A DNA stretch of 42,978 nt from Clostridiales bacterium (GTDB taxonomy: Bacteria; Bacillota; Desulfotomaculia; Desulfotomaculales; VENG01): assembly GCA_021736985.1 (NCBI GenBank), contig JAIPEW010000024.1:1-42978 (forward strand), read 5' to 3'. The notes under the pieces are model-generated. The model ran no database searches. It saw only the letters and a program-made list of their open reading frames with translations, and was not told where the DNA came from. A program made the translations under genes and the position numbers. Of the stretch, positions 622 through 42,978 are shown in pieces (the stretch's first letter is position 1; the number at the start of each line of letters is the position of its first letter).

Positions 622-1506
622 TTATGTTTCATCTTCCTTCTTTAAAATAAGCATGTCTATAGATATGAATAAGTAATACTCAAAATAATTTAATATATTG
701 TAGATAAAATACTGTTCATCAACTATTAAATCGTTTTTGCTTTGCAGCGCAATGAGAATTTTATCTTCCAAGTAATCGCTTTTATACGGTATAAATAAAA
801 TATCCTTTTTATAATTTAAAGTTTTGGTTTGTTTATCACAATAAAAAGTTTGATAATTTAAAATGCTATTCCTGAGTATTTTAAACGCTGAACAAGTTAA
901 GCTAAAATGACTTTTTAATTGATGAAGGTTTTCTTCAATTAAACCATCGTAAATAACAATTTCTATGTCCGACTTTTGATAATCACAGTACATTTTTAAA
1001 GGTTGATAAATATACGATTCATACGAGAATGTCAAGTTTTCTAATTCATGTTCTAAATTTTGTGTATAATCAGAAAAACCCTCAAATATTTCATTTTCTG
1101 CTTTTATTTTATCAAACAAGATATCAATAGTGTTGTCCTGTTCATCAATAATATCTTTGGTAGTCTCCTCGCTTATACTGCCTCCAATGTTGCCGAATCG
1201 GATTTCCCCCAGTTTAGTTGTTCTGATAATTAAATGGTCAATGACTACGGCAAAAGTTGTAAAAGCAATAAAGTGGATTAGCAATATCCATAATTCTTGT
1301 GGTATCCCTATTTTACTAGATGTTTTAAAAATATCAGAAGGTAAATTGTCTATATAAACTGAATAAAACAAAAATACAAGTGAATACCATAACTTCCTTA
1401 TTTTTTTAATGTTAGATGCATCACTTAATTCTTTAACAAAAAAATTGATTACAGAATATATTGTTAAGACAATTGCTAATAAAAAAATATATAAATAATT
1501 GTCCAT
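622..1506 (-). CDS. Membrane protein with N-terminal TM segments and C-terminal GAF-like domain
   Basis: This is a 294-residue hypothetical protein. Three hydrophobic segments lie near residues 4-24, 40-55 and 70-94 and are followed by a polar, partly coiled region (about 115-165). The C-terminal part (about 165-290) alternates strand-like and helical stretches, and its pattern recalls a degenerate GAF/sensor domain: LFIPYKSDYLEDKILIAL, then a final amphipathic helix. No output domain (kinase, GGDEF, HTH) is present, so if it senses something it must pass the signal to another protein. The ATG at 1506 is preceded by GGAGGGGC, 11 bases upstream. The gene is strikingly AT-rich compared with carB next to it, which suggests horizontal acquisition. 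The GAF reading is an inference from pattern only. Confidence 0.6.
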   Translation of the reverse strand: MDNYLYIFLLAIVLTIYSVINFFVKELSDASNIKKIRKLWYSLVFLFYSVYIDNLPSDIFKTSSKIGIPQELWILLIHFIAFTTFAVVIDHLIIRTTKLGEIRFGNIGGSISEETTKDIIDEQDNTIDILFDKIKAENEIFEGFSDYTQNLEHELENLTFSYESYIYQPLKMYCDYQKSDIEIVIYDGLIEENLHQLKSHFSLTCSAFKILRNSILNYQTFYCDKQTKTLNYKKDILFIPYKSDYLEDKILIALQSKNDLIVDEQYFIYNILNYFEYYLFISIDMLILKKEDET

Positions 1507-1566
1507 ATGTTAATTTAGCCCCTCCGCATACTTTAATGCTTTTTCATGGTCTATTTTTTATTTAAG

Positions 1567-1596
1567 AATATATCAAAAAAATTTTTTTGATATATT
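1567..1596. repeat. Perfect 30-bp AT palindrome
   Basis: The arm AATATATCAAAAAAA (1567-1581) is followed directly by its exact reverse complement (1582-1596), so the whole is one uninterrupted palindrome. It lies about 60 bp upstream of the minus-strand membrane gene and about 430 bp upstream of carB. It could be a protein-binding site or a cruciform-forming intergenic element. Without a T-tail on a GC stem it is an unlikely terminator. Confidence 0.6.
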
Positions 1597-1823
1597 TCAC
1601 TTTTATCCTCCTGGCCCACACACTTACTAATAAAGTATTTATTCCTCACTTATTGACATTTTCCTCCAAACAAAAATCGACTTCTTTTACAAAAATAATT
1701 ACTGTATTTAACTCCCATTTTACCTACTTCAAAACAAAAGAACTACCCGTTAAAGCGGATGGTAATAAACTTGCTACTCTTTAAATGTTTTGGAGATTAT
1801 ATCTACTGATAATTAACAAACAA

Positions 1824-1850
1824 ACTGACAGTCTTTGCGGGAATTGACAG
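1824..1850 (+). repeat. Short repeat, copy 1 of 3 (upstream of carB)
   Basis: The sequence ACTGACAGTC at 1824, followed by TTTGCGGGAATTGACAG, closely matches two copies beyond the carB stop (5430-5456 on plus, 5501-5523 on minus). Unit length is 23-27 bp. The core is a GACAG, then a GGGAA, then a second GACAG. The rest of the 1507-2027 gap holds the palindrome at 1567 and the carB promoter; an open frame at 1587-1784 has no ribosome site and is probably not a gene. Confidence 0.6.
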
Positions 1851-1959
1851 ATTGGTGGTAACGTAACTAAACTAACAAAAGAATAAAGTGTATGTGGTGG
1901 GGTGGTTAATTATTACATTTTGATATTCCTTTTATAGATTTTGTTTATTTTTTAAAAGG

Positions 1960-1988
1960 TTTACATGGAAAAATGATAAATGTATATT
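1960..1988 (+). promoter_or_regulatory. Probable sigma-A promoter of carB
   Basis: TTTACA at 1960-1965 and TATATT at 1983-1988 are separated by 17 bases, close to the housekeeping consensus. The start codon of carB follows about 40 bases later behind a strong AGAGGAGG ribosome site. I see no PyrR-type attenuator structure in the short leader. Confidence 0.55.
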
Positions 1989-2027
1989 AATTAAAATGCA
2001 TAGTAAATAAGCTAAGAGGAGGAAAAT

Positions 2028-5000
2028 ATGCCCAAAAGAAACGATATCAATAAAATTCTTATTATTGGCTCAGGCCCGATTATCATTGGACAGGCCTGTG
2101 AATTTGACTATTCCGGCACCCAAGCCTGTAAAGCCTTGAAAAAATTAGGCTACCAGATTGTTCTGGTCAATTCAAATCCGGCCACAATTATGACTGACCC
2201 GGAAATTGCTGATGTCACCTACATTGAGCCGTTAAATTTAAAGAGCCTTACCGGCATTATAGCTAAAGAGCGCCCTGATGCAGTGCTGCCCAACTTGGGC
2301 GGCCAGTCGGCCCTGAACTTGTGTTCCGAGCTTTACAAGGCGGGTGTATTGGAAAAATACGGAGCTAAAGTAATCGGAGTGCAAATTGATGCCATTGAAC
2401 GCGGGGAAGACCGCATCGCTTTTAAAGGAACAATGGACCGTTTGGGCATTGAAATGCCCAAAAGTAAACCGGCTTACAGTATCGAGCAAGCTAAAGAAAT
2501 CGCACAAGAAATGGGATTTCCGGTGGTTATCCGCCCGGCTTATACCATGGGAGGTACCGGCGGCGGGCTGGTTTTTAATATGGAAGAGCTGGAAACAATA
2601 GTCAGCCGCGGCATTAGTGCCAGCATGATTGGACAGGTCCTGGTGGAAGAATCGGTTCTGGGATGGGAGGAACTGGAGCTGGAAGTTGTCCGGGATTCCA
2701 AAAATCAAATGCTGACTGTTTGTTTTATTGAAAATGTTGATCCCATGGGTGTGCATACCGGTGATTCTTTTTGTACGGCACCAATGCTCACCATCGACCA
2801 GGAGCTGCAGGATCGCTTGCAGAAATGCGCCTATGCTATCGTTGAGGGCATAGAAGTGATTGGCGGTACCAATGTGCAGTTTGCCCATGATCCCAAAACC
2901 GGCCGGGTGGTAATTATTGAAATTAACCCCAGGACCTCCCGCTCGTCGGCATTGGCTTCAAAGGCTACCGGCTTTCCTATCGCTTTTATCTCGTCCATGC
3001 TGGCCGCCGGCTTAACCCTGGATGAAATTCCTTACTGGCGGGACGGCACTCTGGATAAATATACGCCTTCCGAGGACTATGTGGTGGTCAAGTTCCCCCG
3101 CTGGACTTTTGAAAAGTTTCCTGATGCCCAGGACAAGCTGGGTACACAGATGCGCGCTGTGGGCGAAGTGATGAGCATCGGTAAAAACTATAAAGAAGCC
3201 TTTCAAAAAGCTATCCGCTCTCTGGAAATAGGGCGTTACGGGATGGGATTTGCCAGGGATTTTCACCAGCGTTCGCTGGATGAACTATTGTCTCTGCTGG
3301 CGGAGCCATCAAGTGAGCACCAGTTTATTATGTATGATGCCCTGCGTAAAGGCGCCAGCGTGGAGCAGTTATACGAAATTACCCACATCAAGCCCTGGTT
3401 TATTGAGCAGATGAAAGAGCTTGTACAGCTGGAAGAAAATATCCTGGAATATAAACACGACCAACTGCCTGACGAGCTGCTGGTGCAGGCTAAAAAGGAC
3501 GGGTTTGCGGACCGTTATTTGGCCCAGCTGTTAAGTGTCCCGGAAGCTGAAATCCGCCGGCGCAGAACCATATTGGGGATGGTAGAGGGATGGGAAGCGG
3601 TCCCGGTAAGTGGTGTGGAAAACGCAGCCTACTATTTCTCTACCTACAACGCACCTGATCAAACTACAGCCAGCGACCGGGCGAAAGTGATGATCGTGGG
3701 TGGGGGCCCGAACCGCATCGGCCAGGGGATTGAGTTTGACTACTGCTGTGTACATGCGGCTTTTGCCCTGCGGGATATGGGGCTGGAGACAGTGATGGTG
3801 AACTGTAACCCGGAAACGGTTTCCACTGACTATGACACTTCTGATAAGCTGTATTTTGAGCCTCTGACCCTGGAAGATGTATTGAGTATATACGAAAAGG
3901 AAAAACCCCTGGGGGTAATCGTACAGTTCGGGGGGCAAACTCCCTTAAACATTGCCAGGGAACTGGCTGCGGCCGGGGTGAAAATATTTGGCACCTCTCC
4001 AGAAACAATAGACCTGGCAGAAGATCGTGACAGGTTTCGACAGGTAATGGAAAAACTTGAAATTTCGATGCCGGAATCCGATATGGCAATGTACTTTGAA
4101 CAGGCACTGGTCATTGCCAATCGCATTGGTTACCCCTTGATGGTTCGTCCTTCATACGTTTTGGGTGGACGCGGCATGGAGGTTGTCTACGATGAGGAAA
4201 GCTTGCGCCAGTACCTGGAGGCAGCTGTGGAGGTTACGCCGGAAAGGCCGATTCTAATAGATAAATTCCTGGCTAACGCGATTGAAATTGAAGCTGATGC
4301 TGTCGCTGATAGCACTGATGTTCTTGTACCCACGGTGATGGAGCATATTGAACTGGCAGGTATTCATTCCGGAGATTCCGCCTGTGTGATACCACCGGTA
4401 AATCTTCAGGCCAAGCATATAGAAACCATCGTGGAAATCACCAGGAAAATTGCAAGAGAACTAAATGTAGTGGGGTTGATGAATATTCAGTACGCCATTG
4501 CTAATGACCAGGTTTACGTGCTGGAAGCCAACCCCAGGGCATCACGAACAGTTCCCCTGGTGTCCAAGGTATGTAACATCCGGATGGCCCGTATAGCCAC
4601 AGAAATAATGCTGGCCGGCCAAACCGGTAAAGAATCACCAATCAAGGGCTTCGTTCCCGGGAAGATTCCTCATTTTGGAGTAAAAGAGGCAGTTTTCCCC
4701 TTCAATATGTTCCAGGAAGTGGATCCACTGCTGGGCCCCGAAATGCGCTCTACCGGGGAAGTGCTGGGGATTGCCGGTTCCTTCGAGTTGGCGTTTTTTA
4801 AAGCCCAGGAAGCAACCCGGTCGCCCCTTCCCGTATCGGGAACCGTTTTGATTAGTGTGAACGATGATGATAAGCAGGCGGCCCTGGAAGTAGCCAAAAT
4901 ATTTAACCAGCTGGGCTTTAATATTAAAGCTACGGAAGGAACCCATAAGTTCTTTAAAGAAAATGGTATCCCATCGGAAGAGATCAAGAAACTATATCAA

Positions 5001-41177: not shown

Positions 41178-42512
41178 CTATTTCTTCTGAAATTCGTAAT
41201 AGTACAGGTTTCCATTGCCAGTGCCTATTGCCAGATTCTTGCTGTCCGGCGAAAAAGAAAGGCCGTTAATTTCATCATCGTGTTCAACCGAGTAAAGGAG
41301 AGAGCAGTTACCTGTATCCCATACGTATAATAAGCCATCATACCCTCCGGATGCAAGCTTGGTGCCATCGGGAGAAAAATCCAGGCTAGAAACTGTAATG
41401 TCGGGAGCATCCAAAACCTTCTGCCTGCTGCCGTCCTCAAGGCTGAAAAGGTGAACTTCCCTGCCTAAGTCAGGCACTACTGCTGCCAGCGTTTTCCCAT
41501 CAGGGGAAAACGCCAGGTCGCGTACTCCTCCTGTGTCTTCAAACGTAAAAGTATATGCCAGCTTGCCACTGTCCACTTCCCACAGCCGTACTTCGCCATC
41601 ACGGAACGCAGCGGCCAGGTAAGCACCATCCGGGGAAAATTCTATTGCACTTACCCCACCGGCTTCGGGATCAAATTCAGCTACCTGTTCGAAATCTACT
41701 CCTTTTTCCGCCTGCCACAGCCAGACAACACCATTAGTTTGATTGGGATGTGTGGCCAGCATTTTGCCGTCGGGCGAAAAAGCGACCCTGCATTCGTGCC
41801 CGCCGTGCAGAACATCTATCTTTGTCAGGTCCTTCGCATCCCATAAACTAACGCCCCACCATGCTGTACCCAGGATGGAACCGTCCGGGGAAAAATCCAG
41901 GCTGTTTGATTGCGGGCGATCCCCTTCGGGATTATCTTCCCCGGAAGCAATAATTTCACGCTCTGTCACGGAAAATAGATCTACTTCTTTTGCGCCTATA
42001 GCTATTGTGTCACCATCGGGTGAGTAGGCCAGGTTAGAAATTTCTTCCCACTCTTCCGCCGTATAGAGCAGTACCATTTTCTCTTTTTCCTCAGAGCTGG
42101 GGATTGTAATCGTCTTTGTTGCCCCGTCCCAAATTACATCGCGGCCAAAGGCTTCACCGGAAAATCTCAAGGGAATATAGGTTCTTCCATTAAAGATCTG
42201 TGCTGGGACATCTAAAACTTTTGTTTTGCCATTAACAGTAACTTCTTTACTACCAATAGGTATATCTACCCGTTGGTTACCTAGTATTCCGGTAGCTATG
42301 TTGTTTTGTGCATCCCATTCCATTTTAGCCCCAAGAGGCTCAAAGATATGTCTGGCAGGAACCAGGGTTCGACCGTCAATGATTTTTGGCGGGGCATCAG
42401 GCTGAATGGTCTCTCCATCAATAATTAATTCGATATCTTCCTGGGCTTCCGCCGTCATTCCTAATGAAACAACTAACATAAGGGCTAAAAATAAAATAGT
42501 AATTTTTTTCAA
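41178..42512 (-). CDS. Secreted stalk-domain (Cu-amine-oxidase-N type) WD40 protein
   Basis: This is a 444-residue exported protein. A signal peptide (MKKITILFLALMLVVSLGMT) ends near AEA at residue 23. Two copies of the copper-amine-oxidase N-terminal-like stalk motif follow (IIDGRTLVPARHIFEPLGAK near 44; IFNGRTYIPLRFSGEAFGRD near 106). Then a seven-bladed WD40/YVTN-type propeller begins near 155, each blade carrying YSPDG or FSPDG/FSPDS. Such fusions are common at the surface of anaerobic Firmicutes; the likely role is protein-protein or wall interaction, with no enzymatic motif. The apparent start is a TTG at 42512. The insertion element ends only about 10 bp upstream, so the native promoter and possibly the original ATG and ribosome site were displaced. 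Expression may now depend on the element. Confidence 0.88.
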   Translation of the reverse strand: MKKITILFLALMLVVSLGMTAEAQEDIELIIDGETIQPDAPPKIIDGRTLVPARHIFEPLGAKMEWDAQNNIATGILGNQRVDIPIGSKEVTVNGKTKVLDVPAQIFNGRTYIPLRFSGEAFGRDVIWDGATKTITIPSSEEKEKMVLLYTAEEWEEISNLAYSPDGDTIAIGAKEVDLFSVTEREIIASGEDNPEGDRPQSNSLDFSPDGSILGTAWWGVSLWDAKDLTKIDVLHGGHECRVAFSPDGKMLATHPNQTNGVVWLWQAEKGVDFEQVAEFDPEAGGVSAIEFSPDGAYLAAAFRDGEVRLWEVDSGKLAYTFTFEDTGGVRDLAFSPDGKTLAAVVPDLGREVHLFSLEDGSRQKVLDAPDITVSSLDFSPDGTKLASGGYDGLLYVWDTGNCSLLYSVEHDDEINGLSFSPDSKNLAIGTGNGNLYYYEFQKK

Positions 42513-42523
42513 TTTATCAAATT

Positions 42524-42579
42524 CCGCCAGAAGACCCCCACCTCTAAGCCGAGGGCGAAGGTGGGGGATGAATGGCGGC
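42524..42579 (-). mobile_element. Right-end hairpin of an IS200/IS605-type element
   Basis: CCCCCACCT (42535-42543) pairs with AGGTGGGGG (42559-42567), and an outer CCGCC (42524-42528) pairs with GGCGG (42574-42578). This two-tier subterminal hairpin, just after the iscB stop on the minus strand and beginning with CATCCCCCACC, is the usual right end of IS200/IS605-group elements, which end in single-strand hairpins instead of inverted repeats. The left end and any TnpA lie beyond the window. Confidence 0.7.
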
Positions 42580-42580
42580 T

Positions 42581-42978
42581 TTAAAGCACATTGTCATAGT
42601 ACAGTAACTTAACCGCACAGGTCTTGACGGGTTTAGCTAAACCGTCAAGTTTAATGTAAGCTCCCTTGTTCTGCACCCCTTTAACCAAGTACCTTTGACC
42701 GTAATAAAGAACAGTATCAAATGGCTGCAGTGGATACCGCTGGCGGCGTATGCTAACCCGGCCTTTCTTAACCTTGTGGCCACGGTACTTACGAAGGTTC
42801 TCCGTGTTTTGGTTCTTATTCCGGGTGCGCCTGCCGCTGTTTAACTCCTGGCCGCTGGCTTTGTCCCCGGTGCGGGTGTCTATATACCTGGCATCGTAGA
42901 ATTTTTGCAGGGAACGGTTATTGCGGCGCACCTGCTGGATAGTTAGGGATTCACACCTGGTTTGGATTGTACCCCCGG
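42581..42978 (-). CDS. iscB: IscB-family RNA-guided nuclease, C-terminal part (partial at window edge)
   Basis: The frame is open to the window edge, so the N-terminus is missing; 131 residues are visible. They match the C-terminal end of IscB/RRXRR proteins: VRRNNRSLQKFYDARYID, SGQELNSGRRTRNKNQNTEN, KKGRVSIRRQRYPLQPFDTV and VKGVQNKGAYIKLDG. IscB is the transposon-encoded, omega-RNA-guided ancestor of Cas9; the RuvC and HNH parts should lie beyond 42978. A GTG at 42931 is only an internal codon. The omega RNA would be expected upstream of the gene and is therefore not visible. The right-end hairpin of the element follows the stop within a few bases, consistent with an intact 3' end. Confidence 0.85.
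   Translation of the reverse strand, partial: GGTIQTRCESLTIQQVRRNNRSLQKFYDARYIDTRTGDKASGQELNSGRRTRNKNQNTENLRKYRGHKVKKGRVSIRRQRYPLQPFDTVLYYGQRYLVKGVQNKGAYIKLDGLAKPVKTCAVKLLYYDNVL

What the first reader, a model, noticed from the sequence alone, without database searches (positions are those of the whole stretch)
42512..42978. IscB element landing immediately upstream of the stalk-WD40 gene
The right-end hairpin of an IS200/IS605-type element ends about 10 bp before the TTG start of the WD40 gene. The native upstream region is displaced. The element carries an IscB nuclease, so a guide RNA should lie beyond the window edge.
Basis: partly seen in the sequence, partly recalled or inferred. Interest (0 to 1): 0.55.

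Follow-up and report, generated by a model that had tools for sequence, protein, structure and literature searches.

The report
IscB transposon inserted at gene start
A small jumping gene that carries an RNA-guided DNA-cutting enzyme (IscB, a cousin of Cas9) has landed five bases in front of the start codon of a secreted-protein gene, probably separating the gene from its own ribosome-binding site; it is an ordinary member of a known transposon family.

Summary
Observation confirmed; the reading largely holds. A strong hairpin (42524-42578) ends 11 bp before the TTG (42512) of the Cu-amine-oxidase-N/WD40 gene. The frame entering from the contig end (42976-42581, minus) is the last 131 aa of an IscB, 71% identical at best to full-length RRXRR+HNH proteins elsewhere. 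The window is a whole contig that stops inside a repeated element: the genome holds four more right ends and seven left ends, all running into contig ends. The left end is HEARO RNA (RF02033), the IscB guide-RNA scaffold. The element starts GTCAAY, ends AATTTG (one copy TTTT) and is followed by ATAAA, a published IscB target-adjacent motif; at a sister insertion, similarity to an uninterrupted homologue begins exactly at ATAAA. Hence the boundary is 42517/42518. Best candidate for the lost upstream side is contig C1 (GGAG 8 nt before the TTG). Best explanation: an iscB-only element moved in trans by a Y1 transposase, carrying a guide against its own empty site. Not shown: this copy's HNH/RuvC part and left end (absent from the assembly), the C1 pairing, any activity. 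New member of a known kind; low interest.

The parts
42581..42976 (-). 3' part of iscB (last 131 codons, starting just after the RuvC-III motif; 5' part beyond the contig end). Carries a 9-nt in-frame deletion near its end relative to the four sister copies.
42524..42578 (-). Right-end imperfect hairpin: outer stem CCGCCA/TGGCGG around a 9-10 bp inner stem
   Evidence: the same region, with a few base differences, in 5 of 5 right ends of this genome
42518..42978 (-). The part of the IscB element that lies in the window; last element base 42518 (…GGCGGAATTTG on the minus strand)
   Evidence: boundary from 5 right ends, the homologous uninterrupted site of a sister insertion and, weakly, the frame test on the C52 flanks
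42513..42517 (-). ATAAA: host target site next to the element and presumed IscB target-adjacent motif (TTTAT on the other strand)
   Evidence: ATAAA at 5 of 5 own right ends and downstream of the element genes in 6 of 6 relatives looked at; published NTAAA/ATAAA TAM of OrufIscB
41178..42512 (-). Neighbour gene: predicted secreted protein (signal peptide by eye), Cu_amine_oxidN1 ('stalk') domain and WD40 propeller, TTG start

Best explanation
The right-hand 461 bp of an iscB-carrying IS200/IS605-superfamily (ISC) element. The full element is inferred to be guide-RNA scaffold (HEARO) - iscB - right-end hairpin, without its own transposase. A Y1 transposase (TnpA) supplied from elsewhere in the genome moves it as single-stranded DNA, cutting the strand that reads TTTAT next to the right end and TTGAC at the other end. 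The element inserted at ATAAA five bases before the TTG of the WD40 gene, between the gene and its ribosome-binding site (GGAG). The HEARO RNA starts with about 16 nt copied from the left flank (candidate TTAATATTTGGAGTGT), so IscB can recognise flank + ATAAA, that is, the site left empty after excision. Cutting it would let repair from the sister copy put the element back. Shown: right-end boundary, guide scaffold family at the left end, target motif, family of the protein's C-terminus. Inferred: the full make-up of this copy, transposition in trans, cutting, retention, the C1 flank, and a drop in translation of the WD40 gene.
For: C-terminal IscB homology to RRXRR+HNH proteins. HEARO over its gathering score at one left end of the same genome (C36, 108.3 bits against 83); the other six left ends are recognised by 95-100% DNA identity over its first 81 bases. 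HEARO upstream of iscB in L011-L016 and L094, 7 of 7. Seven left ends and five right ends, all running into a contig end, as repeats in a draft assembly do. No tnpA between the iscB stop and the hairpin. Uninterrupted homologue of a sister insertion: similarity starts exactly at ATAAA. C52 flanks rejoin into one open frame of 228+75 codons at |GTCAA / TTTG|ATAAA. C1 flank: best ribosome-site energy of the six left flanks, -6.8 kcal/mol, reached by 9 of 249 ATAAA sites of the window. An intact Y1 transposase gene is present on C36.
Against: The first ~304 residues of iscB, with RuvC-I/II and HNH, were not found in the assembly, so this copy could be broken. The window copy has a 9-nt deletion. 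The C1 join is not proven: with six left flanks and a 3.6% background rate, one such match arises by chance about one time in five; -6.8 is weaker than 7 of 10 gene starts scored in the window; and the C1 gene has a match in 0 of 112 other genomes of the order, so no synteny test was possible. Open frames do not decide the pairing: C52L also runs open into the WD40 frame (674 codons), and C47 with C58 is as open as C9 with C58 (163 against 162). In the C52 frame test, cuts three bases further also left 74 codons open. That C36's TnpA serves these elements is only inference. HEARO on C36 is followed by tnpA-tnpB, not iscB, so some of the seven left ends may not belong to iscB copies.
Confidence: 0.87

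Rival explanations
1. The copy is a dead or truncated relic: a right-end fragment with only the iscB 3' part, immobile, merely a scar next to the gene.
For: Only the C-terminal 131 aa are seen; 9-nt deletion unique to this copy among five; N-terminal part not found in the assembly.
Against: The contig ends inside the frame at the same base as the C36 copy, as expected of a collapsed repeat; the frame is open to the last base and the deletion is in frame; right end 95% identical to the C36 copy over 467 bases.
Confidence: 0.12
2. The element supplies a new leader: the right end now drives or translates the WD40 gene (weak ribosome site GGCGG in the element, read-through from iscB), so that the insertion rewires rather than silences it.
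For: Same direction as iscB; the terminator scan finds no site in the right end; the present 20 nt upstream score -4.8 kcal/mol against the 16S tail; 3 of 5 right ends in the genome lie 5 to 30 bp upstream of a start codon.
Against: Two of those three genes keep a ribosome site of their own on the gene side (sequence); promoter-like hits in the region are at background level (4 found, 2.3 expected, sd 1.4; one of the four lies at the junction); an AT-rich target favours 5' regions anyway (inference).
Confidence: 0.15
3. The hairpin is the tail or attenuator of a native operon and there is no mobile element.
For: Hairpin directly upstream of a gene.
Against: The same end sequence lies at four other places with different flanks; uninterrupted homologue at one of them.
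Confidence: 0.01

Closest known systems
ISC / IscB elements of the IS200/IS605 superfamily with HEARO (omega) RNA, Rfam RF02033
   Different: Nothing of kind; the present copy sits 5 bp before a start codon, and its N-terminal half is unseen
OrufIscB (PMC13180657, passages seen)
   Same: NTAAA, best ATAAA, as target-adjacent motif
   Different: Tested enzyme; here the motif is deduced from insertion sites only
ISDra2 TnpA/TnpB (PMC8612924 and PMC2806898, passages seen)
   Same: Single-strand peel-and-paste next to a pentanucleotide that is also the nuclease's motif; proposed retention by cutting the empty site
   Different: TnpB guide comes from the right flank and the motif precedes the left end; here, by inference, the guide comes from the left flank and the motif lies at the right end

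Membership tests
IscB (RRXRR/HNH RNA-guided nuclease) | C-terminal part homologous to known IscB | tested here: met
   71% to L011, 65% to L012 (69% to L011 in the alignment); of 7 plasmid records hit, 5 are annotated iscB, at 52-60% identity
IscB (RRXRR/HNH RNA-guided nuclease) | RRXRR N-terminus, RuvC-I/II and HNH in the same protein | tested here: inconclusive
   RRXRR in L011-L015 and L094, HNH over cut-off in all of these but L015 (of L013 only the first 326 residues were scanned); this part of the window's own gene was not found in the assembly
HEARO / omega RNA | RF02033 match over gathering score at the left end | tested here: met
   C36 copy 108.3 bits. C37 45.5 bits, under the cut-off of 83, cut by the contig end. 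The other five are cut too short for the model. The window's own left end is not in view
IS200/IS605 superfamily | Hairpin ends and insertion next to a fixed short target | tested here: met
IS200/IS605 superfamily | No target-site duplication | tested here: inconclusive
   The C52 flanks rejoin in frame without a duplication, but other offsets fit too; both flanks of one insertion are nowhere proven to belong together
IS200/IS605 superfamily | Y1 (HUH) transposase acting on the element | not testable with these tools
   no tnpA between iscB stop and right end; Y1 genes elsewhere in the genome; action in trans is inference
IscB (RRXRR/HNH RNA-guided nuclease) | RNA-guided DNA cleavage | not testable with these tools
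   needs an assay

The most novel reading that the evidence does not exclude
On contig C36 of the same genome the HEARO left end is followed not by iscB but by tnpA and tnpB with a TnpB-type right end. Read boldly, a single element family here combines an IscB-type guide scaffold at one end with a TnpB nuclease and its own guide at the other, and its TnpA mobilises the iscB copies that share its left end.
Probability: 0.08. Interest if true: 0.5.

Novelty: new member of a known kind. Interest (0 to 1): 0.2.

Why it matters
It is a natural example of an IscB element whose right end, target motif and candidate guides can be deduced from one draft genome, and it shows how such elements break assemblies: the contig edges are the elements. 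The effect on a gene's ribosome-binding site is testable but ordinary insertional biology.

Tried and rejected
Native hairpin/attenuator: rejected by the sister copies and the uninterrupted homologue. Synteny of the C1 gene: no match in 112 other genomes of the order. Close copies in viral contigs: one relative, L094, 64% identity. HEARO upstream of tnpA as a general arrangement: a nucleotide profile built from seven HEARO copies found none in the 80 viral loci with a relative of C36's tnpA (86 had matched, the best 80 were kept). Limits of that test: the flank was 2,500 bases at most, in four of the 80 loci (L102, L104, L112, L162) under 300 bases lie before the match, and the three positives (L022, L011, L094) were all in the profile's training set. 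Papers: three DOIs that I take from memory to be the primary selfish-spread, omega-RNA and ISC papers are not held; what I say of them is recalled or comes through PMC9755519. A first model put the cut at G|TCAAC / TTTGA|TAAA (used); replaced by |GTCAAC / TTTG|ATAAA, which gives an empty site of the same length and fits the conserved bases better.

Full report
What the window holds. The window is the whole of contig C21 of a draft genome of 65 contigs and 2.84 Mb. Its right end reads, on the minus strand, an open frame of 131 codons cut by the contig end, a stop, a hairpin, and 11 bp later the TTG of a 444-codon gene with a Cu_amine_oxidN1 domain and a WD40 propeller. The hairpin is far stronger than shuffles (z -4.8 as RNA, -4.6 as DNA, 0 of 200 each).

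The protein is IscB. The 131 residues hit no family model by themselves. A scan of genome contigs gave six related loci. In L011 (Syntrophomonas), L012 (Pelotomaculum), L013, L014 and L015 the protein has RRXRR (5 of 5), and HNH is over its cut-off in four of the five, not in L015. Of L013 I scanned only the N-terminal 326 residues; the rest lies in another frame. The fragment starts just behind the RuvC-III motif (motif name recalled) and is collinear to the end. L016 is cut by its contig end, and its left flank and left-end sequence as printed are the same as those of L011, so it is no independent case.

The element is repeated in this genome. The window's last 579 bases match five places including itself; the other four right ends lie at ends of contigs C36, C52, C58 and C63. 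All five share the hairpin region, with a few base differences, and go on with AATTTGATAAAT (four) or AATTTTATAAAG (one). The window copy lacks 9 bases near the iscB stop that the others have. The left end was found as HEARO RNA (RF02033): C36 right end, 108.3 bits, and C37, 45.5 bits, below the cut-off of 83 and cut by the contig end. Searching with the first 81 bases gave seven places, C36, C35, C9, C1, C37, C47 and C52, at 95-100% identity. Six of them run off a contig end after 138 to 199 bases; on C36 the contig begins with the element and shows no flank. An eighth hit was the palindrome within C52's own copy. All seven start with GTCAA[C/T], and the six flanks in view are all different. 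Relatives L011-L016 and L094 start their HEARO with GTCAAC, 7 of 7 with L016 a repeat of L011.

The missing middle. A search of the genome with the 439-residue IscB of L011 found only residues 305-437. The RRXRR family was not found either, but that search was silent in its control genomes too. A collapsed internal contig left out of the assembly would explain this; it is an inference.

Boundaries and target. A gene on C36 whose TTG lies 30 bases beyond the right end there has a homologue inside C52 (93% over 322 bases). The alignment starts exactly at ATAAA: C52 reads AAGA before it, C36 the element's TTTG. ATAAA follows the right end in 5 of 5 own copies and occurs within about 57-105 bases behind the end of the last element gene, or a point near it, in 6 of 6 relatives; four of these six have more than one ATAAA, and I took the one that follows the hairpin by eye (the relatives' right ends were not folded). 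ATAAA occurs at 0.0029 per position in the window. The two flanks on C52 rejoin to one frame of 228+75 codons at this cut; cuts three bases further leave 74. C52 has the left end on one end and the right end on the other, so it may be a circular replicon with a single copy. Host sequence in the window therefore ends with ATAAA at 42513-42517, directly in front of the TTG; the element begins at 42518.

Known motif. OrufIscB is reported to recognise NTAAA, best ATAAA (PMC13180657, passages). This places the motif on the right flank and the guide on the left, the mirror of ISDra2 TnpB, whose guide comes from the right flank and whose motif TTGAT precedes the left end (PMC8612924 and PMC2806898, passages). 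On the strand that a Y1 transposase would cut, the target reads TTTAT and the far end TTGAC; that this is the cut strand is inference.

The displaced leader. With the element, the 20 nt before the TTG score -4.8 kcal/mol against the 16S tail; with the C1 flank restored, -6.8, with GGAG 8 nt before the TTG; the other five flanks give -4.4 to +1.5. 9 of 249 ATAAA sites in the window reach -6.8, so one hit among six flanks could arise by chance about one time in five, and 7 of 10 gene starts scored in the window are stronger. Exclusion helps little: C52L and C52R, and C9 and C58, look like halves of one gene each when their translations are read, but open frames alone do not decide (C47 with C58 is as open as C9 with C58, and C52L also runs open into the WD40 frame). 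The last C1 gene, a predicted lipoprotein (by eye) without a Pfam family, points toward the junction and ends shortly before it. I put C1 as the partner at about 0.65; on recounting I lowered this from 0.7 and the overall confidence from 0.88 to 0.87.

Mobility. No tnpA lies between the iscB stop and the right end, whereas in L011 tnpA overlaps the iscB end. [quoted passage not shown] The genome has twelve Y1_Tnp matches, several of them pieces; the strongest is a 131-residue gene on C36 with a near-complete Pfam match. Mobilisation in trans is the natural inference.

An odd neighbour. On C36 the HEARO left end runs into tnpA (131 aa) and tnpB (364 aa) with no iscB. The piece just before tnpA recurs alone on C19 at 82% over about 70 bases. 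None of 80 viral loci with related tnpA had a HEARO match, within the limits given under Tried and rejected. It may be a nested or adjacent pair, a deletion, or an assembly join at a repeat.

Verdict. A genuine IscB element, correctly read by the first stage, ordinary in kind.

Noticed in passing
L022 about 1375-3369 (contig C36 right end, minus strand): HEARO RNA followed by tnpA and tnpB with a TnpB-type right end (by eye) and no iscB between; its first 81 bases are 100% identical to three other left ends.
   Followed up: partly
Contig C52 (L095-L098), both ends: Left end at one end of the contig and right end at the other, flanks rejoin in frame; most long frames on one strand. Possibly a circular plasmid or integrative element with one IscB-type copy.
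   Followed up: partly
L094 1834-3560: HEARO-iscB element (453 aa, RRXRR and HNH) in a viral contig of IMG/VR, HEARO 146.8 bits, followed by a 939-codon frame.
   Followed up: partly
L023 about 500-905 (contig C36 left end): The gene behind that right end has, by eye, a TnpB zinc-ribbon-like tail at its C-terminus; the homologous frame on C52 (50568-52184) is much longer.
   Followed up: no
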